Positions 10,325 through 20,989 of a DNA stretch of 21,775 bases are shown piece after piece. A program made the translations under genes and the position numbers. Under the pieces are notes generated by a model. It ran no database searches. It was not told where the DNA came from and worked only from the letters and a program-made list of their open reading frames with translations. Position 1 is the stretch's first letter; the number at the start of each line of letters is the position of its first letter. This DNA is from a virus: positions 1 to 21,775 of the IMG/VR virus record IMGVR_UViG_3300015373_000050; one strand, written 5' to 3'.

Positions 10325-11424
10325 GCGCCCCCACCCCGGCCCGGGTCCTCACCCAGCACGCCCTCACCGGGGCGTGGCTGTCGACCGCGCTCCCTGTCGG
10401 CGATCTGGAGTACGGCGACGAGCTCAACGGGCCCGGCAGCCTGTCGGGGAAACTCTCACCCCGCCTGCTGTCCTCCAACCCCACCCTCGCCGACCCCGGC
10501 AACACCCTCATCTACGTGGAGGCGGCCGGGCAGTTGGTGTGGGGAGGCATCGTGTGGGACGTCCGCACCCAGGGAAGCGACTACGCCATCGAGGCCGCCT
10601 CATGGTCGTCCTACCTGCAAAAGCGTTTCGACCTGGACGGCGAGTTCGGCGGCCGCGGCCCCTACACCTACGCCGACCGCTGCCACGTCCTGCGCGACAT
10701 CTGGACGTACGCCCAGTCCATTGCCGACGGCGACCTGGGCGTCACTGTCGATGCCACCACGTCCACGTCGACCATCGGCACCCCCGACGACGTGTACCAC
10801 TCCTACTCCTACGACGTGAACTGCCTCGGCGACAAAGCCGACGACCTGGTCTCCGGGGACGCCACCCCCGACTACACGTGCGCCACCTCCTGGAACGCCG
10901 ACAAGACCGGCGTGGTGAAGCGGATCCGGCTGGGCTGGCCCCGCCTCGGTGCGCGCCGCACCGATATCTCCTTCTCCTCCGGCGTGAACATCATCGAGGA
11001 CCCTGAAGTGGCCCTCGGCGGCGACGACTACGCCCAGGTCGTCATCGCCTCCGGCGCCGGTGACGGTTCGGCGAAGCTGCGGCAGATCTCCGCCGTCCGC
11101 AACGGACGCCTCCGCCTCGAAGCGGCGATCGACGCGCCGGAGCTCAACGGAAACGACACCCTGAAGGCCCGGGCGTCCGCCGAGCGGGCCTGGCGGCAGG
11201 TGCTGGGCTCCGTCGACCAGATCACCATCCGCAACACGGCTGCGGCACCGTTCGGGTCGTGGCAGGTCGGCGACGACGTGTACACGCGCGTCCATAACGC
11301 GTGGACGGACTTCACCGGCTGGTGCCGCATCACCGGATGGATCGTCAAGCCGGATGCGGCCGGCGGCCCGCAGGCCACGGTCTCCCTTAAACCGTCCGCC
11401 ATGTACAACTACGGGGGCGTGTGA
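10321..11424 (+). CDS. Minor tail protein, baseplate hub-like
   Basis: This 367-residue protein fits the hub-like (tail-associated) proteins of actinophages, similar in layout to the Gp37-like family. Seen: [20 protein letters not shown] near residues 22-41; [20 protein letters not shown] at about 64-83, typical of the hub beta-barrel start; [14 protein letters not shown]; a central helical and beta part; and a C-terminal return of barrel strands ([30 protein letters not shown]). No peptidase or lysozyme motif was found, so it is probably structural. It starts at GTG 10321 in a GTGA overlap, and its TGA (11422-11424) is one base before the GTG of the next gene. Confidence 0.72.
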
Positions 11425-11425
11425 C

Positions 11426-14275
11426 GTGGACATCGGCCGCAAGCTGAACGAGCTCGACACCCGCGTGGCGAAGGTGGAGCGCTCCGCGCGCCTGTCCCAT
11501 GCGGCGATCGACAACACGTCCGTCGCCGTGAAGGACGGCGCGGGGAACCTGCGGGGCATCATCGGCGTGCAGGCCGACGGCACGACCGCGGTGAACATCG
11601 TCAACGGCGCCGCGCCTCCGCAACCCTCTGCCCCGGCCGTGGTATCGGTGCTGGGTGGGGTGACCGCCGCCTGGGACGGCGCGTTCGCCGGCGGCGCCAC
11701 CATGCCCATGGACTGGCAGCGCGTCGAAGTCCACGCCTCGGTGACGAGCGGCTTCACCCCCGACCCGACCACCCTCAAGGCCACCATCGAAACCCCGCAG
11801 GGCGCCACTACGGTCATCGTCACCGCCATGGACGTGTACGTGCGCCTGCTGGCCCGCAACACCTCCGGCACCGCCTCCACACCATCCGACCAGACCGGCC
11901 CGCTCGGGCCGACACCGGTCGTTGCCGACGACATCCTCGACGGCATCGTCACCACCATCAAACTTGCCGACGACGCGGTCACCGAGGCCAAGGTAGCCAC
12001 CGGCGCGATCGGCTCCACCGCCATCCAGGACGGCGCCGTCCTGGAGGCGAAACTCGCCGCGAACGCCGTCACCACCGGCAAACTCGCCGACCTGGTCATC
12101 ACCGAAACGAAACTCGCCGCGAACGCGGTCACCGCGGCGAAGGTCGCGGCGGGGGCGATCGACACTGTGGCGATCGCAGACTCCGCGATCAATGCGGCGA
12201 AGATCGGGGCGGCGGCCGTCGTCGCGGGGAAACTCGCCTCGAACGCGGTTACCTCGACGACCATCGCCAACGATGCTGTCACCGCGGGGAAGGTGGCAGC
12301 GGACGCCATCACCGCCCGGGAGATCACCGCCGGAGCGGTGACGACCGCGGAGCTCGCCGCCGGCGCGGTCACGGCCAACGAGATCGCCGCCAACGCCGTC
12401 GTAGCGGGGAAGATCGCCGCGAATGCGGTCACCGCCACGACGATCGCGGCCGGGGCCGTGCAGACCGCGGCCCTCGCCGCAGACGCGGTCGCCGCCGGGA
12501 AGGTGGCCGCAGACGCCATCACGGCCCGGGAACTCGCTGCCTCCTCGGTGACCACCGCGGAGATCGCCGCCGGCGCGGTCACCGCGGCCGCTGTCGCCGC
12601 AGGGGCCATCACCACCGACAAACTCACCGTGACCGGCGGCGCCAACGTGCTGTCCGATCCCAGCTTCGAGGGCGCCTACAGTGCCGCCCTCGTCTCCGGC
12701 AGCAGCTTCCTCAGCATCGACACCACCGGCAACGGCTCCGCGCACTCCCTGAAAATCAACGCGGTCGCCGGATCGGCCACCACCCGATCCCAGAAAATCA
12801 CCGCCCTGCCCATCCTCCCCGGCGACCAGCTGTACGTGGCCGCCGACTACCTCACCACCAGCGACTACACGGCCACGGCCACCGTCAAGTTCTACGCCCG
12901 CTGGGAGGACTCCACCGGCACCGTCCTCGGCTACGGCGTAGCGCAAGGCTCCCCGCCCGTCCTCGGCGGCTCCACCTGGACCCGCATCACAGCCACGGTC
13001 ACCGCGCCCGCGAACACCGTGACCGCCAGCATCTGGGCCGAGTCGTTCCAGGCGTCCGCCGGCAGCGTCTGGTTCGACAACGCCTCCGTCCGCCCCGTCC
13101 TCGCGGGCACGCAGATCCAGGACGGCGTCATCACCACCGCCAAGATTGCCGCCCTGACCATTCAGGCCGGGAACATCGCCGCGGACGCCGTGGCGGCCGG
13201 GAAGATCGCCGCGGATGCGGTGACCGCCCGGGAGATTGCCGCGAGCGCGGTCACCGCATCCGAGATCGCCGCCAACACGATCGTCGCGGGGAACCTGGCC
13301 GCCGGGTCCGTTGATGCGACCGCCCTGTCCGCGACCGCCATCACCGGCAAGACCATCACTGGCGGCACCATCACCGGCACCACCATCACCGGCGGCACCC
13401 TCCAGACCGCCACGTCCGGGCAGCGCATCACCCTCAACGAATCGTCCGCCAACAAGATCCTCGTCTACAACAGCTCCGGTACCGCGATCGGCGAACTCTC
13501 CGCATCCGGGCTGCTCGTCAAGGGCACCAACGGGGCGATCATCCAGCTGGACCCCAGCAACGCCTACCCCAACCTGAAACTGACCAACTCTTCGGGTACC
13601 CAGTCCGCCGTCGTCAACATCAGCGGCTCCGACGCCCTCATAGGATTGAACAGTGGGCAGTTTTCCAGCGGCTCTTACACCGACTGGAAATGGCGCACTC
13701 TCTTCGGCAGCAGCAGCGGCACCGAAGTGTGGTGCGCCGAACGCACCCGCGACGGGGACACTTCCACCTACCTCGGCGGCCGCATCTTTATCGACGCCAC
13801 CCGCGCCAGCATCGGGTACATGAGTTCTGCCGATTCCTCCCAAAACGGCTACATCAACTTCACCGCCCAGCTGGCGCAGATCTTTAACGGGCGCTTCGAA
13901 GTCATCCCGATGGCGTCGGCCAACTCGGCCCTGACCGTCAACCCGGCCTCCGGGCACACCGGGAACCTGGCCCGGTTCCAGGTCAACGGCACGGACAAGT
14001 TCGTCGTCGATAAGGACGGCAAGGTCACGGCCGGGAACATGGCCGCCGGCCACGTCACCATCACCCCCGTCGCGAACACTCCCACCAGCGCCACCGTGAC
14101 CGGCCTGAACCTGACCGGAACGGTCCGTGTCGTCGCCACCGCAAGCACATCCGTTCCCGGCACCCAGGTCACCGGTGTCGGCGTCAACAGCGTCAGCACC
14201 ACCGGATTCACGATTTGGCTCACCCGCACCAACACGACTTCCACCGGCGTCGACTGGATCGCCATGGGCGAATGA
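11426..14275 (+). CDS. Long tail fibre with decapeptide repeats and central jelly-roll-like domain
   Basis: This 949-residue protein starts at GTG 11426; the frame is open further left only as a shadow. Domains: residues 1-40 helical attachment part ([18 protein letters not shown]); about 60-150 a fibronectin III-like domain ([16 protein letters not shown] ... [15 protein letters not shown]); about 170-400 a run of decapeptide repeats (AVTAxKIAAx); about 404-557 a carbohydrate-binding-module-like jelly roll ([10 protein letters not shown] at the start, [12 protein letters not shown] at the end); about 564-641 more decapeptides; then [10 protein letters not shown] triplet-like repeats and a beta-rich tail ending in a tip domain ([29 protein letters not shown]). 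It is probably a trimeric fibre for host contact. It follows the hub gene by one base. Confidence 0.8.
11933..12630 (+). repeat. Decapeptide (30-bp) repeat array, first block
   Basis: About 23 consecutive 10-residue units follow the pattern AVxxxK(I/L/V)AAx with almost no phase breaks, for example [40 protein letters not shown]. Units share DNA words such as gcggtcaccg but are diverged. The hydrophobic spacing suggests a regular beta-solenoid or triple-stranded shaft. Confidence 0.85.
13115..13347 (+). repeat. Decapeptide repeat array, second block
   Basis: About eight further units of the same kind (for example [30 protein letters not shown]) resume after the jelly-roll-like domain and start with the same IQDGxI lead-in seen in the first block. 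They pass into ITGxTITGGT repeats. Confidence 0.8.
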
Positions 14276-14304
14276 GCCCGCCCCCGCCACGAAAGGACCC
14301 TGTG

Positions 14305-14637
14305 ATGAGCATCGACCCCGACCCGGCCACGGACGGCGAAGACACCGAGCCGCCGCTCCCCGCCGCCCCCACGCCGCCCCCGCCCGACACCGGCCCCGTC
14401 GACACGCCCCCCGATGCGCCGCCCGCACCACCTCAGCCGATCGTGTTCGAGCCGTTCACCTGGTACCAGGTGACCTCCACGTGCACCACCCCGGCCTGCC
14501 CGAACCTGAACACCACGACGACGGAGCCGATGGTGTACTCCAACGCAGGAACCGTGATCATGGTGTGCGGGCTGTGCAACCAGCGGCGCACCATACTGGC
14601 CGCGACGAAACTGGACCCGCAGCCCGAAATGAGCTGA
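14305..14637 (+). CDS. Small proline-rich protein with C-terminal zinc ribbon
   Basis: This 110-residue protein has an acidic, proline-rich, disordered first half (residues 1-47, runs such as APTPPPPDTG) and a compact second half starting FEPFTWYQVTSTC. Four cysteines, Cys60-x4-Cys65 and Cys88-x2-Cys91, form a likely zinc ribbon. Function is not recognised; it may be a virion accessory or a binding protein. ATG at 14305 is preferred over GTG 14302 because GAAAGGA (14291-14297) is then seven bases away. It lies between the fibre gene (29 bases upstream) and a 167-base spacer before the lysis genes. Confidence 0.75.
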   Translation: MSIDPDPATDGEDTEPPLPAAPTPPPPDTGPVDTPPDAPPAPPQPIVFEPFTWYQVTSTCTTPACPNLNTTTTEPMVYSNAGTVIMVCGLCNQRRTILAATKLDPQPEMS

Positions 14638-14804: not shown

Positions 14805-15623
14805 GTGCCCGACCTCGACATCAAGCAGTACGACGTCACCGGCGCACTGGGCCGGCACCTCGTGCTGGACCCGCGCAGCCTCGCCTACCGGCGCCGCTAC
14901 AACGGCGAGCCCCTCAAGCCCGCCGAGTGGGCCCCCAAGGTGCCCGTCCTGGACCAGCAGGACCTGATCGCCCAAGGAATCCACACCAGCCAGTTGTTCA
15001 AGGGCGCCCCCGACGTGGACGCCCTCGGCTCCTGCACCGCGAACAGTGCCACCGCCCTCATCTCCATCCTCCACGACCCGGCCACGCTCGCCGAAGCCGG
15101 CCTCGACGTCACCGACCCGGCCGCCGCCGAGGAGTGGGCGATCGGCCTCTACTCGGACGCCACCCACCGCGACCAGTGGCACGACCAGGCTTGGCCCAGC
15201 ACCGACTGCGGCTCCTCCGGCCTCGGCGTCGCCAAAGCCCTGCGCCACCGCGGCCTCATCGACCAGTACGGGCACGCCACCACCGCCGAAGAGCTCGGCA
15301 TGCTCCTCCAGACCGGGCCCGTTCTCATGGGCATCGTCTGGGTGGACGCGTTCTTCACGCCAGACCCGGACGGCTTCATCGACACCGCCCCGAACTGGCT
15401 CACCTCCACCGTCGCCGGCGGCCACGAAGTGTGCCTGACCGCCCTCGAAGACGTCGCCTTCAACCCCGACGGCACCCTCGCCGACAGCACCGTCCTGCGC
15501 TTCGTCAACAGCTGGACCACCAGTTGGGGAGACCAGGGATTCGGCCGGCTGACGGTCGGGACGTACCGCGCCCTCAGACACGAGATCGACCTCGTGCAGC
15601 CCCGATTGGACTCCGCCCGATGA
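14805..15623 (+). CDS. Papain-like (C1 family) cysteine peptidase, possible lysis or cell-wall peptidase
   Basis: This 272-residue protein shows the papain-fold catalytic pattern: Cys77 in LGSCTANSA, His207 in GGHEVCLTAL and Asn235 in FVNSWTTSWGDQGFG. Cys135 lies in DCGSSGLGVAKAL. The Gln that normally lies six residues before the Cys (oxyanion hole) is Val here (DVDALGSC), so activity may differ. There is no signal peptide or membrane helix. The GTG start at 14805 follows AGGAG by 11 bases. The TGA overlaps the amidase start (ATGA at 15620-15623), linking the two. It could be a peptidoglycan peptide-cleaving partner of the amidase, a processing protease, or a host-directed protease; the first is favoured by coupling alone. 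Confidence 0.8.
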   Translation: MPDLDIKQYDVTGALGRHLVLDPRSLAYRRRYNGEPLKPAEWAPKVPVLDQQDLIAQGIHTSQLFKGAPDVDALGSCTANSATALISILHDPATLAEAGLDVTDPAAAEEWAIGLYSDATHRDQWHDQAWPSTDCGSSGLGVAKALRHRGLIDQYGHATTAEELGMLLQTGPVLMGIVWVDAFFTPDPDGFIDTAPNWLTSTVAGGHEVCLTALEDVAFNPDGTLADSTVLRFVNSWTTSWGDQGFGRLTVGTYRALRHEIDLVQPRLDSAR

Positions 15624-16804
15624 CCGAGTACCACGTCGCCATCGACCACCTCGCATCCCCCGACCCGGACACCCCCGAGCATCAGGTGGAGACCACCTAC
15701 CTCGGTGTCGTCGACCAGGCCCACGTCGACGACGTCCGCGCCATCGCCGCCCTCGACGACTCGCCCCGGTTCGTGAAGGAGCACCCGCACATCGACGGCG
15801 CCTTCTGCGTGCTGCGCGACGACGGCGACCTGGACGTGTACGTGCCCGTCGGCGCCCCCGAGTACCGGGTGTACGAGCCGGACCCGGGCCCGAAGACGCA
15901 GATAGAGGGCGCCGACATGCCGCGCGGCGCCACCGCTGGCCTGGCCTACATCTCCGGCGTCACCCGGTTCGGCGACCAGTCCATCGGCGGCGCCATGGAC
16001 AGCCCCACCCGGCCCCCGCGGGCCGTGTGGCACACCACCGAATCCCCGGCTGGGGGCAACTACTTCTCCAGTGTTGCCGCCTACCTGATCCGGGTCGCCT
16101 CCGAGCCGCAGGTCATTTACGACCCTGTCACCGACCGGCTGGGCCAGTTCGGCCCGCTCACCCAGTCCGCCCGGGCCTTGCAGAACGACGGCTCCTACCG
16201 CACCAACCGGACCGGGAAGGTGTGTGTGCAAACCGAGGTCCTGGGGCGTGCGGCCAACCCATGGACGAACGGATTCGACCCGTCGAAGAAGCCGAACTTC
16301 CGGAAGCTGATCGCGGCCTTGCGCGGGCACGATATCCCCGACGTGTGGCCTGTGGGTAAGCCTCCGGCGACTCTGGCCGCTGCCACCAAGCGGCCGAAGA
16401 CGACGTGGGAGAACCAGGGCGGGCACTACGCGCACGGGCAGATCCGTGGGCAGAGCCACTGGGACCCGGGCGCTATCGACACCGACATCGTGCCGGGCAA
16501 GCCCGTTGTGGAGACCAAGCCGGCCCCGTCCACGCCGTCCAAGCCGTCCGTGCACTACGAGCCGTTCCCCGGCAGCGGGTTCTTCCACCCGGGGCGGCAC
16601 AGCCCCATCATCACCGCCCTCGGCCGCCGCCTGGTCGCGCTCGGCTTCGGCAAGCACTACAACTCCGGGCCTGGTCCGGACTGGACGAACGCCGACCGGG
16701 CCAACGTGCGCGACTTCCAGTTGTCGCGGGTCGATCTGCGCGGCGATGCCGACGGCATCCCCGGGCCGAAGACCTGGGCAGCGCTCAGGGTCCCGAAGGT
16801 CTGA
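15620..16804 (+). CDS. Endolysin: N-acetylmuramoyl-L-alanine amidase with cell-wall-binding domain
   Basis: This 394-residue protein would cut the amide bond between muramic acid and the stem peptide. Residues about 135-295 form an Amidase_2-like zinc domain: His138 in VWHTTES, Gln204 and Glu206 in VQTEVLG, His280 and Asp282 in SHWDPGAID, giving the likely zinc ligands and catalytic Glu. A Pro/Lys/Ser linker (about 291-310) leads to a C-terminal peptidoglycan-binding-like domain (about 310-394: ALGRRLVALGFG, NVRDFQLSRV, GIPGPKTWAALRV). Residues 1 to about 125 form an extra acidic domain of unknown function. No signal peptide is seen, so export probably depends on the holin. Start ATG 15620 overlaps the peptidase stop. 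Confidence 0.9.
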   Translation: MTEYHVAIDHLASPDPDTPEHQVETTYLGVVDQAHVDDVRAIAALDDSPRFVKEHPHIDGAFCVLRDDGDLDVYVPVGAPEYRVYEPDPGPKTQIEGADMPRGATAGLAYISGVTRFGDQSIGGAMDSPTRPPRAVWHTTESPAGGNYFSSVAAYLIRVASEPQVIYDPVTDRLGQFGPLTQSARALQNDGSYRTNRTGKVCVQTEVLGRAANPWTNGFDPSKKPNFRKLIAALRGHDIPDVWPVGKPPATLAAATKRPKTTWENQGGHYAHGQIRGQSHWDPGAIDTDIVPGKPVVETKPAPSTPSKPSVHYEPFPGSGFFHPGRHSPIITALGRRLVALGFGKHYNSGPGPDWTNADRANVRDFQLSRVDLRGDADGIPGPKTWAALRVPKV

Positions 16805-16844: not shown

Positions 16845-17216
16845 GTGGCCGCATCACCGTTCAAGATCTTCGGGCGAGAGCCGTCCGTCATCCTCGGCGC
16901 CGTCGCGATCGTCGTGCAGTTCGTGTCCGCGTTCGTCATCAACGTCAGCCAGGACACCCAGACCGCCATCAACGCGGTCGCCGCCGCGCTGGTCGGTTTC
17001 ATCGTGGCCTACATGGTCCACGACGAGGGCGCCTTCGCCGCGTTCGTCGGCCTCGGGCAGGCCGCTCTCGCGCTGGCGATGAACCTGGGCCTGCACTGGT
17101 CGGGCGACAAACAGTCCGCGTTCATGGCGCTGTTCACGATCCTCGGCCAGTTCTGGCTGGTCCGGGACCGGGTCACCGCACCGGTCACCAAGGAAGGCCT
17201 GCGGCTGGCCGCTTGA
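16845..17216 (+). CDS. Holin candidate, multi-pass membrane protein
   Basis: This 123-residue protein starts at GTG 16845 with an excellent AAGGAGG six bases upstream, 40 bases after the endolysin. Four hydrophobic segments are visible at about residues 16-34 (ILGAVAIVVQFVSAFVI), 41-58 (AINAVAAALVGFIVAYMV), 63-82 (AFAAFVGLGQAALALAMNLG) and 91-106 (AFMALFTILGQFWLV), with short charged loops and a charged C-terminus. Size, number of segments and position after the endolysin fit an actinophage holin that permeabilises the membrane at lysis. The longer frame running left is a shadow of the endolysin. Confidence 0.8.
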   Translation: MAASPFKIFGREPSVILGAVAIVVQFVSAFVINVSQDTQTAINAVAAALVGFIVAYMVHDEGAFAAFVGLGQAALALAMNLGLHWSGDKQSAFMALFTILGQFWLVRDRVTAPVTKEGLRLAA

Positions 17217-17251: not shown

Positions 17252-17542
17252 ATGGGCGACGAGCCGACCCCCGGAGAAATGGTCCGGCGTCTCGAAGATC
17301 GGCTCGCCGACGTTCGCGATGACATCCAGCAGCTCGGCCGGCGCATGGACGAGAAGGTCGACCAACGGATCTACGACCTTCGACACGAGGCGCTGACCGG
17401 GCGGGTGTCCACGCTGGAAACCCTTCGCGAGAAAGACGCAGAGAAGTTGGTAGCCACCAGACGGTGGCTGATCGGAGCCGTTGTTGTGCCCCTGGTCGGA
17501 ATTCTCCTTCCGGTGATCATCCTCCTTGCCCGGGGGACGTGA
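17252..17542 (+). CDS. Coiled-coil protein with C-terminal membrane anchor, lysis-module accessory
   Basis: This 96-residue protein has a long charged helix (about residues 8-66, MVRRLEDRLADVRDDIQQLG and on) that should form a coiled coil, then a single hydrophobic segment at about 73-92 (WLIGAVVVPLVGILLPVIIL) and RGT at the end. This layout recurs in small proteins next to holins in actinophages and resembles XhlA-type lysis partners; an antiholin, second holin or lysis-timing role is possible. ATG 17252 follows AGGAG (17241-17245) by six bases. Its TGA overlaps the next ATG by one base (TGATG at 17540-17544). Confidence 0.75.
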   Translation: MGDEPTPGEMVRRLEDRLADVRDDIQQLGRRMDEKVDQRIYDLRHEALTGRVSTLETLREKDAEKLVATRRWLIGAVVVPLVGILLPVIILLARGT

Positions 17543-18222
17543 TGACCAGGGCACAGATACGAGCTCAGGAACGACGGTGGCGGCGCGGGGACAGCCTGGC
17601 ACTCCTCGCGGCCGTCATCCTCGGTGTCGCCCTGGCATGGATCCTTCTGGCCGTTCAGGGCCTACAGGACGAGCTGCGCACGTCCAACGACGCCCGGGAT
17701 GCGCTGGCCCGGCAGGTGCGATCGCTTGGTGGTACGCCGGTGGCGGGGCCGCCGGGCAGCCGTGGCGAGCCGGGGAAGACGGTGATCGGTGCGCGCGGGC
17801 CGTCAGGACCGCCGGGCCCGTCGGGTAAGCCAGCACCCACCATCACGCCCAGTCCCGGCCCCAGCGGACCTGCTGGACCCTCGGGAGCGCCGGGAGCGGA
17901 CTCCACCGTGCCCGGCCCGGTCGGACCAACCGGCCCGACCGGGCCGGCAGGACAGGACGGTGCGGCCGGGCAGGACGGAAGCGACGGGAAGAACGGGGCC
18001 CCGCCGTCGTCGTGGACGTACACCGACCAGGACGGCAACGAATACCAGTGCGTGCCCGTCGACGACTTCGACCCCGACAACCCCCGCTACCGGTGCACGC
18101 AGACCTCCACCGCAAGCCCGGGCCCATCGCCCTCACCCAGCGACACGCCGTCCCCGAGCGACAGCCCCACCTCCACTGGTCTGCTGCCGCTGACCATCGC
18201 CGACCGCCGCCGCAGTAGCTAG
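17542..18222 (+). CDS. Membrane-anchored collagen-like protein
   Basis: This 226-residue protein has an Arg-rich N-terminus (RAQERRWRR), a membrane helix at about residues 19-42 (LALLAAVILGVALAWILL), a short coiled-coil-like stem (43-65), a collagen-like Gly-X-Y region at about 69-154 in three runs with two interruptions, a small domain with Cys170 and Cys185 (possible disulphide), a Ser/Pro linker, and a terminal LLPLTIADRRRSS. The positive-inside rule puts the collagen part outside the membrane. It should form a trimer. ATG 17542 (or GTG 17539) overlaps the previous stop. Function is unknown; it could act in lysis, in the cell wall, or in excluding other phages. A virion role is less likely because of the anchor. 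Confidence 0.75.
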   Translation: MTRAQIRAQERRWRRGDSLALLAAVILGVALAWILLAVQGLQDELRTSNDARDALARQVRSLGGTPVAGPPGSRGEPGKTVIGARGPSGPPGPSGKPAPTITPSPGPSGPAGPSGAPGADSTVPGPVGPTGPTGPAGQDGAAGQDGSDGKNGAPPSSWTYTDQDGNEYQCVPVDDFDPDNPRYRCTQTSTASPGPSPSPSDTPSPSDSPTSTGLLPLTIADRRRSS

Positions 18223-18232
18223 GAGACTCACG

Positions 18233-20989
18233 ATGACCACGGTGAACGGGAAGCTGCTCGGGGCGGAGCGCCCGGAGCGGGTGGAGATGGTCGCCACCCT
18301 CGTCGACGTGACCGGGAAGACGGCGGTCGGCTACGTGCCCTCCCTCGAGGGCGAGCTGGTCCGCCCGGTGCCCATCCGCCCGGACAGCACCGGCACCTGG
18401 ACGGCCACCCTGACCGCGAACGCGCTGATCACCTCCCAGGCGGGGGACACCCTGTGGGCGGTGCAGGAGGGCCGGGCCAGGGACGGCAGCCCGATCCTCA
18501 CCTACATCGCCGTCCCCGAGACGGGCGGCCCCTACTGGGCGGGGGAGATCCTCGCCGATCTGTCGTCCACGCAGACCGGGGACAGCACCGTCCTCTACCT
18601 GGCCGGGCCTTCCGGGACGGACGGGGCGTCGGCCTACCAGGTGGCTGTGGCCAACGGCTTCACCGGTACCGAGACGGAGTGGCTGGCCTCCCTGGTCGGG
18701 CCGCAGGGTGCCCCGGGCTCCGGGGGCGGCGCCGTCGACAGCGTCAACACCCTCACCGGGGATGTGGTCCTGGACGCGGCAGCGGTCGGTGCTGACCCAG
18801 CCGGGGCGGCATCCGCAGCACAGTCCGCAGCTGTGACGGCGGCGGCCACGGATGCCACCGCCAAGGTGACCGCCCACACCGGCGCTACGGACCCGCACGG
18901 CGACCGGGCGGCCGCGGCGGCCGCGCTCAGTGCACACACCGGCGACACCACCGACGTGCACGGCATCCCGGACACGGCATCCCTCGAGACATCCGCCGGC
19001 GCCCAGGCGAAGGCCGACACAGCCCAGACGGCCGCGACCACCACGGCAGCCTCCGACGCGACCGCGAAGGTGGCCGCACACGTTGCCGCCACCGATCCGC
19101 ACGGCGACCGCGCTGCCGCATCGAGCGCCCTGACCGCCCACGCCGCCGACTCCACCAACGTGCACGGCATCACCGACACCGCGCTCCTCGAGACGACGGC
19201 CGGCGCGCAGGCGAAAGCGGACGCCGCGCAGACCGCGGCCACCAGTACGGCCGCGAGCGACGCCACGGCGAAGGTGAGCACGCACACGGGCGCATCGGAT
19301 CCGCACGGGGACCGCGCCTACGCCGACTCGGCGAAGCTCGCCAAGACGGCCAACCTGTCCGACCTTGCCAACACCGCCACGGCCCGAACGAACCTGGGCC
19401 TCGGCGGGGCGGCCACGCTCGCCGTGGGCACCGCCTCCGGGACAGTGGCCGCAGGGGACGACAGCCGCATCACCGGTGCGGCACAGAAGGCCTCCAACCT
19501 GTCCGACCTTGGCTCCGCGTCCACGGCCCGCACCAACCTCGGCCTCGGCGGGGCTGCGCTGCTGAACGTGGGCACCAGCGCGGGCACTGTGGCGGCAGGC
19601 GACGACGCCCGCATCACAGGCGCCCTACCGGCCACGGGCGGCACCATCACCGGCGACCTCGAGGTGGCGGGCCGTCTGACCACGGCCGGGTTCGCCCTGC
19701 CGCTCACACCGCCCGCATCCGCCAGGCCCGCCTGGCGGGACGCCTCCAGCATTGTGACGCTGATGCAGTCCGGGCACGGCTGGACCACCTCGGGCACCGT
19801 CGGATCGTCGAACCTCAACGACACCAGCACCTACGCCAAGGGCACCCAGTGCGCCACGATCACCACCGCAGGCGGCGGCGCGGGAGCCAACCTTCAAAAG
19901 CTCGGCATGACGGCCCTCGACCTGACCGGCAAGGCGGTCCGCCTGCTGCTGAAGATCGACGACATCACCCACGTCAGCTTCTTGAACTTCTTCGCCGGCA
20001 CCAGTTCCCTGGCCAACAACTTCAAGTGGATCGCCCAGCGGGCGACCTCAACAAGCTCGCAGAACTGGATTCAGTCGGGGGAGTGGGTGCTCCTCACCCT
20101 GTCCTGGGCGGACGTGAACGCGGCCTCCGGCTCCTACAGCCTGTCCTCCACAGGTGTGCCGTCGACGACGTCCGGGTTCACGGACATGCGGGTGCAGGCC
20201 GTCGACGACGCGGGCGGCACCGTCACCCTCCACGTACAGTCCGTCGAACTGGTCGCGGACACCAGCGAAACCTTCCCCAACGGCGTCGTCTCCATCACCT
20301 TCGACGACTCCTACGACACCGCGTACAACCTCGCCCGCCCCGTGATGGAGAACCTGGGGCAGCGGGGCACCCTGTACACGATCGCCGACGCCATCGGCCA
20401 GTCCGGTTTCCAGACCCTGGCCCAGTTGAAAACCCTGGACCGGGTGGGCTGGGAGATCGCCGGGCACGCCTACACCCGCGCCAAACACGACGTCGGCTAC
20501 AACACGCTGACCGGCCGGGAGGTCGGCGACGAGCTACGCAACCTGCGGGCCTGGCTGGTGTCCAACGGGTTCACGTCCGCCCAGTTCTCCTACCCGCGCG
20601 GTTTCTTCGGGCAGACCACCGACGGCGCCAACATCGAGGAACTCGCCCGCCAGTACTTCTCCACCGGTCGGTCCATCAACTACGACTCCACCATCGAAAG
20701 CTTCCCGCCGCCGATGCCGTCCCGGATGCGCGCCGTGTCGTCCATCGGCTCCGTCATCGGGTCGGGCAACCGCGCCTACCCCGCCAACCTGGTCGGTGCG
20801 GGCGGCCTTCTGGACCGCTGCCAGCTCGAGGGCTCCTGGCTCCAACTCACCTTCCACAAGATCGTGTCCGGGACCGCGTCCGTCACCACCGAATGCTCCG
20901 TCACCGACTTCACCACGATCATGAACGGGATCGCGTCCCGCAACATCCCCGTCCGCACCGTTGACGACGTTATCCGCAACTACAAGTAA
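18233..20989 (+). CDS. Tail fibre/spike with C-terminal polysaccharide deacetylase domain
   Basis: This 918-residue protein has AGGAG seven bases before ATG 18233. Domains: about 1-120 beta-rich attachment domain; about 125-170 short collagen-like turns around a SAYQVAVANGFTGTETEW motif common in phage fibres; about 200-370 a 68-residue repeat with DPHGDR; about 373-470 a 48-residue repeat (NLSDL, TARTNLGLGGAA); a TGGTITGDLEVAG neck; about 498-685 a jelly-roll-like binding domain; and about 686-918 a NodB-type deacetylase. Catalytic elements seen are TFDDS (Asp691, Asp692), GHAYTRAKH (His745, His752), YPRGFF (788-792) and LTFHK (His875). It would bind and deacetylate a host surface glycan. 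The second motif departs from the usual HxxxH. Confidence 0.88.
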   Translation: MTTVNGKLLGAERPERVEMVATLVDVTGKTAVGYVPSLEGELVRPVPIRPDSTGTWTATLTANALITSQAGDTLWAVQEGRARDGSPILTYIAVPETGGPYWAGEILADLSSTQTGDSTVLYLAGPSGTDGASAYQVAVANGFTGTETEWLASLVGPQGAPGSGGGAVDSVNTLTGDVVLDAAAVGADPAGAASAAQSAAVTAAATDATAKVTAHTGATDPHGDRAAAAAALSAHTGDTTDVHGIPDTASLETSAGAQAKADTAQTAATTTAASDATAKVAAHVAATDPHGDRAAASSALTAHAADSTNVHGITDTALLETTAGAQAKADAAQTAATSTAASDATAKVSTHTGASDPHGDRAYADSAKLAKTANLSDLANTATARTNLGLGGAATLAVGTASGTVAAGDDSRITGAAQKASNLSDLGSASTARTNLGLGGAALLNVGTSAGTVAAGDDARITGALPATGGTITGDLEVAGRLTTAGFALPLTPPASARPAWRDASSIVTLMQSGHGWTTSGTVGSSNLNDTSTYAKGTQCATITTAGGGAGANLQKLGMTALDLTGKAVRLLLKIDDITHVSFLNFFAGTSSLANNFKWIAQRATSTSSQNWIQSGEWVLLTLSWADVNAASGSYSLSSTGVPSTTSGFTDMRVQAVDDAGGTVTLHVQSVELVADTSETFPNGVVSITFDDSYDTAYNLARPVMENLGQRGTLYTIADAIGQSGFQTLAQLKTLDRVGWEIAGHAYTRAKHDVGYNTLTGREVGDELRNLRAWLVSNGFTSAQFSYPRGFFGQTTDGANIEELARQYFSTGRSINYDSTIESFPPPMPSRMRAVSSIGSVIGSGNRAYPANLVGAGGLLDRCQLEGSWLQLTFHKIVSGTASVTTECSVTDFTTIMNGIASRNIPVRTVDDVIRNYK
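18845..19325 (+). repeat. 68-residue (204-bp) tandem repeat in the deacetylase fibre
   Basis: The DPHGDR codons start at 18890, 19094 and 19298, exactly 204 bases apart. Each full unit also holds VHGIxDTAxLET and an AGAQAKADxAQTAA helix followed by a DATAKV stretch. The third copy breaks off after DPHGDR. The spacing is precise and the DNA is similar but not identical. Confidence 0.9.
19352..19625 (+). repeat. 48-residue (144-bp) two-copy repeat in the deacetylase fibre
   Basis: NLSDL starts at 19352 and again at 19496, 144 bases apart. Both units read NLSDLxxxxTARTNLGLGGAAxLxVGTxxGTVAAGDDxRITGA, a motif shared with many phage fibres. Confidence 0.88.

What the first reader, a model, noticed from the sequence alone, without database searches (positions are those of the whole stretch)
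14805..16804. Translationally coupled papain-like peptidase and amidase: a two-gene endolysin?
The catalytic Cys, His and Asn of a papain-like peptidase are all present, and its stop overlaps the amidase start (ATGA). Split endolysins, with peptidase and amidase on separate genes, have been described for some actinophages, but as far as I recall usually with other peptidase types. Here the usual oxyanion Gln is Val, so substrate or mechanism may differ. If it cuts peptidoglycan stem peptides or cross-bridges, this is an unusual lysin pair.
Basis: partly seen in the sequence, partly recalled or inferred. Interest (0 to 1): 0.62.

Follow-up and report, generated by a model that had tools for sequence, protein, structure and literature searches.

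The report
Optional papain-like protease beside endolysin
A Streptomyces phage-plasmid carries a real papain-type protease gene directly in front of its wall-digesting amidase, but close relatives swap the amidase for other enzymes or lose the protease altogether, so it looks like an optional lysis-stage protease rather than half of a two-part wall enzyme.

Summary
The two genes and the ATGA junction are real. The peptidase (14805-15623) is a C1A papain-family protease of the xylellain type; the amidase (15620-16804) is a phage endolysin followed by a holin. The window is a fragment of a pZL12-like Streptomyces phage-plasmid.

The 'oxyanion Gln is Val' claim is an alignment artefact. The Gln (Gln51) is invariant, but this clade carries a ~20-residue insertion between it and Cys77, seen in none of 83 more distant relatives.

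A dedicated peptidase-amidase pair is not supported. Behind the same peptidase stand five endolysin architectures, swapped at least 14 times on the peptidase tree. Two relatives carry HNH genes between the two. Eight of 34 complete phage-plasmids of this family lack the peptidase and keep the endolysin.

Association with the lysis module is nevertheless strong: every clade member with enough sequence, at least 22 of 80 distant viral loci, and several Gordonia phages. Other lineages keep the gene far from lysis genes.

Best reading: an accessory, late-expressed, probably protein-cutting C1A protease riding in the lysis module. A peptidoglycan peptidase is not excluded; the substrate is unknown. 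The split actinophage endolysins examined here use C39 peptidases, not C1.

The parts
14805..15623 (+). C1A (papain-family, xylellain-type) cysteine peptidase gene, 272 aa, GTG start
   Evidence: phrog_16701 peptidase E 4e-22; Pfam PF00112 E 0.021, below cut-off; AF2 pLDDT 82.5; best PDB fold matches Lpg2622 and xylellain
14955..14957 (+). Gln51 codon, aligned with the canonical oxyanion-hole Gln
   Evidence: invariant in A2; hhalign A2 vs A1
14964..15023 (+). about 20-residue clade-specific insertion (residues 54-73) between Gln51 and Cys77
   Evidence: present in all clade members, absent in 83 more distant relatives
15033..15035 (+). catalytic Cys77 codon (GSCT motif)
15423..15425 (+). catalytic His207 codon (GGHEV motif)
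   Evidence: invariant
15507..15509 (+). catalytic Asn235 codon (NSW motif); Gln in six relatives
15620..15623 (+). ATGA: amidase start overlapping peptidase stop
   Evidence: junctions in relatives
15620..16804 (+). N-acetylmuramoyl-L-alanine amidase-type endolysin, 394 aa
   Evidence: phrog_17214 endolysin E 1e-74; ligands H138, H272, D282
15620..15907 (+). N-terminal domain of the endolysin (about 95 aa), no known family; usually co-occurs with the peptidase
15935..16519 (+). amidase catalytic domain
16553..16792 (+). C-terminal peptidoglycan-binding domain
   Evidence: PF01471 E 0.004, below cut-off; phrog_1493/880; similar domain in many Streptomyces phage endolysins
16845..17216 (+). holin
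   Evidence: phrog_9752 E 3e-29
11354..14275 (+). tail fibre gene upstream of the lysis module
   Evidence: phrog_892 E 2e-45

Best explanation
The gene encodes a xylellain-type C1A cysteine protease that these phage-plasmids carry as an optional member of the lysis module. Shown: family, intact triad, position between tail fibre and endolysin/holin, free exchange of the endolysin behind it, and natural absence in some relatives. Inferred: it is made late together with the endolysin. It has no evident signal peptide, so it stays in the cytosol until the holin opens the membrane. It then cuts proteins (of the envelope, of the released cell content, or possibly lysis proteins) rather than peptidoglycan, helping lysis or virion release without being required for it. 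The conserved N-terminal segment (LGRHxVLDxRSLAYRR) may hold it in check, as the N-terminus of xylellain is reported to do (from memory). The insertion after the oxyanion Gln probably reshapes the substrate cleft.
For: Family and fold. Lysis-module position in every clade locus with enough sequence, in a chromosomal Streptomyces prophage ahead of a GH25 endolysin, directly before endolysins in at least 22 of 80 distant viral loci, and inside the Gordonia lysis cassette next to the holin. Accessory nature: 8 of 34 complete phage-plasmids lack it. Not tied to one wall bond: partners are two amidase types, CHAP, GH25 and GH19, with 14 partner changes on the peptidase tree. In Gordonia cassettes a C39 peptidase lysin is already present, and the C1 protease lacks the tail that marks the lysin subunits. 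Purifying selection: median dN/dS 0.48 (crude, GC-rich).
Against: No substrate is known and no activity was tested. In mycobacteriophages Indlovu and DrLupo, phiC31-like Shaeky, Wilnyevirus Circinus and plasmid pS1D4-14.2 relatives lie away from lysis genes, so the family's role need not be lysis. The tail/lysis boundary is a place where unrelated accessory genes also settle (general knowledge). The gene overlaps a stand-alone wall-binding-domain gene in both ZL12-type and Gordonia cassettes, so it could be a wall enzyme after all.
Confidence: 0.45

Rival explanations
1. Two-gene endolysin: the C1 peptidase cuts stem peptides or cross-bridges of peptidoglycan and complements whichever amidase, CHAP enzyme or muramidase follows it.
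For: Lysis-module position in several lineages. In ZL12-type and Gordonia cassettes it overlaps a stand-alone wall-binding-domain gene. Other actinophages split LysA into peptidase and amidase/GH genes (PMC9671378). Mycobacteriophage LysA proteins include an N5 domain said to resemble papain-family enzymes (PMC6116114).
Against: Absent from 8 of 34 complete relatives. Gordonia cassettes already have a C39 peptidase lysin. No wall-binding domain of its own. No fusion of C1 with a lysin domain was seen. BetterKatz gp29, annotated 'N5 cysteine protease', is C39 and has no detectable similarity to C1. Relatives occur in phages of hosts of several genera, which from general knowledge differ in peptidoglycan type.
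Confidence: 0.22
2. Accessory (moron-type) protease for host takeover or counter-defence that merely sits at the tail/lysis boundary.
For: Relatives in tRNA arrays, replication regions and a plasmid maintenance region away from lysis genes; patchy presence; HNH insertions at the same spot.
Against: Repeated placement beside endolysin or holin in distinct lineages is more than a random accessory gene would show.
Confidence: 0.2
3. Processing enzyme: it trims the N-terminal domain off the endolysin or matures another late protein.
For: The endolysin N-terminal domain has the peptidase next to it in nearly all loci, and amidases without that domain have none.
Against: Peptidase with partners lacking this domain; N-terminal-domain amidases without peptidase in L148, L149 and L162.
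Confidence: 0.08
4. Virion-associated protease next to the tail fibre gene.
For: Gene follows the tail fibre.
Against: Follows different kinds of upstream genes in other lineages; no structural domain.
Confidence: 0.05

Closest known systems
Xylellain (PDB 3OIS) and Lpg2622 (PDB 6A0N/6A0Q), short bacterial C1A peptidases
   Same: Best fold matches of the model and best sequence-profile matches; GSCT motif, His and NSW motifs
   Different: About 20-residue insertion between oxyanion Gln and Cys, not present in xylellain's VYDQGRIGSCT; phage-borne in a lysis module; only 16% identity over the fold alignment
Xylellain-type C1A peptidases of tailed phages (PMC10380794)
   Same: The paper reports short bacterial C1A peptidases acquired by Myoviridae and Siphoviridae
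   Different: The passages read do not mention lysis position, a Gln-Cys insertion or partner exchange
Streptomyces phage ZL12 pZL12.46c
   Same: 59% identical over 99%, same position, same insertion, ATGA overlap with the next gene
   Different: Next gene is a stand-alone peptidoglycan-binding protein, then an unrelated Amidase_2-type enzyme
Split LysA of Gordonia phages (C39 gene + amidase or GH gene)
   Same: Peptidase and amidase/GH on adjacent overlapping genes
   Different: Peptidase is C39; a C1 gene like this one is an extra member of some of those same cassettes
Ms6 Gp1, export chaperone upstream of LysA (PMC6116114, PMC9671378)
   Same: Directly upstream of the endolysin; dispensable
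   Different: Gp1 is a chaperone that binds the LysA N-terminus; the gene here is a protease with intact triad

Membership tests
C1A papain family (Pfam PF00112) | Papain fold | tested here: met
   AF2 model pLDDT 82.5; 251 PDB matches E<=0.001, the 50 listed being C1A proteases; TM-score moderate, about 0.5
C1A papain family (Pfam PF00112) | Cys-His-Asn triad in that order | tested here: met
   C77, H207, N235; C and H invariant, N replaced by Q in 6 relatives
C1A papain family (Pfam PF00112) | Oxyanion Gln six residues before Cys | tested here: not met
   Gln51 conserved but 26 residues before Cys77 because of an insertion; whether it reaches the oxyanion hole not testable without coordinates
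C1A papain family (Pfam PF00112) | Pfam gathering score | tested here: not met
   15.3 bits against a cut-off of 20.7; the Gordonia relative at 23.8 passes. So it is filed as a divergent C1A homologue on fold and profile evidence, not as a Pfam-certified member
C1A papain family (Pfam PF00112) | E-64-sensitive peptide bond hydrolysis | not testable with these tools
   needs enzyme assay
Xylellain-type short C1A | Closest match among solved C1A structures | tested here: met
   ranks 1-6 are Lpg2622 and xylellain chains; xylellain is best profile hit of the close phage relatives, E 6e-12
Xylellain-type short C1A | N-terminal segment gating the active site | tested here: inconclusive
   conserved N-terminal motif but residues 1-23 have pLDDT < 50
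Actinophage split endolysin (C39 type) | C39-type peptidase gene beside the amidase/GH gene | tested here: not met
   C39 genes are PF13529 hits; the C1 profiles do not hit them
Actinophage split endolysin (C39 type) | Peptidase acts on peptidoglycan | not testable with these tools
   needs zymography or muropeptide analysis
Amidase_2-type endolysin (amidase gene) | His/His/Asp zinc ligands | tested here: met
   H138, H272, D282; HTTE motif in 25 of 26 relatives; second motif found by pattern in 14, the rest missed by the pattern or cut
Amidase_2-type endolysin (amidase gene) | Pfam PF01510 match | tested here: not met
   no PF01510 hit at E<=0.1; PHROG endolysin families match
pZL12-like Streptomyces phage-plasmid | Tail and lysis genes shared with 85-94 kb plasmids | tested here: met
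   34 plasmids with a 42-88% identical minor tail protein, 26 with the peptidase; the window itself is a 21.8 kb fragment

The most novel reading that the evidence does not exclude
Many actinophages carry a dedicated lysis-stage protein protease, distinct from endolysin, holin and lysin B, whose substrates are host proteins rather than peptidoglycan: an extra, optional class of lysis-module enzyme, here in a form with a rebuilt oxyanion-hole loop.
Probability: 0.33. Interest if true: 0.65.

Novelty: new variant of a known kind. Interest (0 to 1): 0.36.

Why it matters
Phage lysis is usually described with holin, endolysin and, in mycolic-acid hosts, lysin B. A C1A protease that recurs beside unrelated endolysins in phages of Streptomyces and Gordonia would be an overlooked accessory function. 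The pZL12-like family offers natural relatives with and without it for a direct test. The Gln-Cys insertion also gives a test of how far the papain oxyanion loop can be altered.

Tried and rejected
Oxyanion Gln replaced by Val: rejected by MAFFT and hhalign alignments. ATGA overlap as evidence of functional pairing: weak, the same overlap occurs elsewhere in the window. C1-amidase fusion as a 'Rosetta stone': long open frames upstream of peptidases do not look coding by GC3-GC2, except L119, which may have a membrane-anchor extension. BetterKatz gp29 as a C1 precedent: it is C39. Endolysin N-terminal domain as a known inhibitor or binding fold: no Pfam or PDB match. Literature searches for a C1 protease in an actinophage lysis module found nothing direct. 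Sigma-70 promoter/terminator scan around the genes: none found. Searches were input errors and gave no data; one search used a wrong frame.

Full report
What is there. The window is a 21,775-base virus record. Its left part holds tail genes, ending in a tail fibre gene (11354-14275) and a small gene (14215-14637). After a 167-base gap come the peptidase (14805-15623), the amidase (15620-16804, sharing ATGA), a holin (16845-17216), a small protein (17252-17542) and collagen-like and fibre-like genes. Nearest relatives are Streptomyces phage ZL12 (59% identity), 42 viral and genome contigs and 26 complete Streptomyces or Kitasatospora plasmids, 25 of them 85-94 kb. The window is therefore most likely a fragment of a pZL12-like phage-plasmid.

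What the peptidase is. It matches PHROG family 16701 (peptidase, E 4e-22), and Pfam C1 only below cut-off. The AF2 model (pLDDT 82.5) matches Lpg2622 and xylellain best. The profile of close phage relatives finds xylellain first (E 6e-12). A published survey already reports xylellain-type C1A genes in tailed phages (PMC10380794).

The active site. Cys77, His207 and Asn235 align with the papain triad. In 35 clade sequences Cys and His are invariant. Asn235 is Gln in six relatives; from memory, Gln at this position keeps much of the activity in papain. MAFFT and hhalign place the canonical Gln at Gln51, with a ~20-residue insertion before Leu74-Gly-Ser-Cys77. The insertion is in every clade member and in a divergent chromosomal relative (L175), and in none of 83 more distant sequences (75 viral contigs plus 8 phages). 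I could not test whether Gln51 or the equally invariant Gln57 reaches the oxyanion hole.

What stands behind it. For 38 distinct clade peptidases with a readable partner, the next lysis gene is: the window-type amidase with an extra N-terminal domain (23); a stand-alone wall-binding protein followed by a different Amidase_2 enzyme (8); CHAP endolysins (5); GH25 (1, after a stand-alone wall-binding gene); Amidase_2-LysM (1). On the peptidase tree, partner type needs 14 changes; the five CHAP cases are as scattered as chance. The peptidase thus keeps its place while endolysins are exchanged. In L033 and L034 HNH genes sit between the two.

Is it needed? Using a minor tail protein as marker, 34 complete plasmids belong to the family; 26 have the peptidase and 8 do not. 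In the six peptidase-less plasmids that I read, tail fibre, wall-binding or amidase gene and the small downstream genes stand in the same order without it. Contig L148 (same length as plasmid CP042280, one of the eight) shows the N-terminal-domain amidase without peptidase. More distant relatives of the amidase lack the peptidase nearby.

Wider family. In Gordonia phages GMA2, Mareelih, Morgana and Lilbeanie the C1 gene lies between a small gene and the holin, in a cassette that already has a C39 lysin and an amidase or GH lysin. The small gene matches the wall-binding end of LysA (Mareelih and Lilbeanie tested). In ZL12-type cassettes the C1 gene likewise overlaps a stand-alone wall-binding gene. 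At least 22 of 80 distant viral loci have an endolysin directly downstream, of amidase, CHAP-like, GH25 or GH19 type (loci not de-duplicated). A Streptomyces chromosome has C1 directly before a GH25 endolysin. In contrast, mycobacteriophages Indlovu and DrLupo, Streptomyces phages Shaeky and Circinus, and plasmid pS1D4-14.2 carry C1 genes away from lysis genes.

How it most likely works. The recurrence beside lysis genes argues for a lysis-stage role in this clade. The partner exchange and natural losses argue against being half of one enzyme. C1A enzymes with this fold cut proteins (established knowledge). I therefore favour a late, optional protein protease released with the endolysin (0.45), over a peptidoglycan peptidase (0.22) and a takeover or counter-defence gene (0.20). 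The proximity to stand-alone wall-binding domains keeps the wall reading alive.

Known systems. Described two-gene actinophage lysins use C39 (tested: Mareelih gp106 and BetterKatz gp29 are PF13529 and unrelated to C1 by profile) or M15/M23 peptidases with GH or amidase (PMC9671378). I found no paper on a C1 protease in an actinophage lysis module, within an open-access library only.

Limits. The window is a fragment. dN/dS values are crude in GC-rich DNA. The 22/80 count rests on simple gene calls. Rarity statements apply only to the collections searched.

Noticed in passing
L002 3164-4584, L004 3240-4618, L005 3183-4570, L006 3293-4605: In Gordonia phages the C39 lysin and the amidase/GH lysin, different folds on separate genes, share a ~20 aa C-terminal tail (LxDxxLAExxxNxRQLGP); tblastn finds it convincingly only in lysin A genes of 15 Gordonia records. 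The following ~122 aa wall-binding gene has ARQLG near its N-terminus. Possible assembly tag of a split endolysin.
   Followed up: partly
window 15620-15907: N-terminal ~95 aa domain of the endolysin: conserved beta-beta-alpha-beta-beta-beta model, no Pfam or PDB match; almost always found together with the C1 peptidase.
   Followed up: partly
L079 and other loci: A second group of phage C1 peptidases ends in a Pro-rich linker and a ~20 aa helix (xLxxAxxxWLxAKGL), absent from the window's clade.
   Followed up: no
L033 6821-7627, L034 6807-7757 (- strand): HNH endonuclease-like genes inserted between peptidase and amidase.
   Followed up: partly
window 18233-20989: Fibre-like 918 aa protein with a C-terminal polysaccharide deacetylase domain (PF01522), after a collagen-like protein (17539-18222).
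   Followed up: no
window 19075-19165 (-): ARAGORN tRNA-Leu call antisense inside the 18233-20989 gene; probably a false positive in repetitive coding sequence.
   Followed up: no
L119 4542-5810: C1 peptidase whose open frame has a coding-like N-terminal extension with two hydrophobic stretches, possibly membrane-anchored.
   Followed up: no
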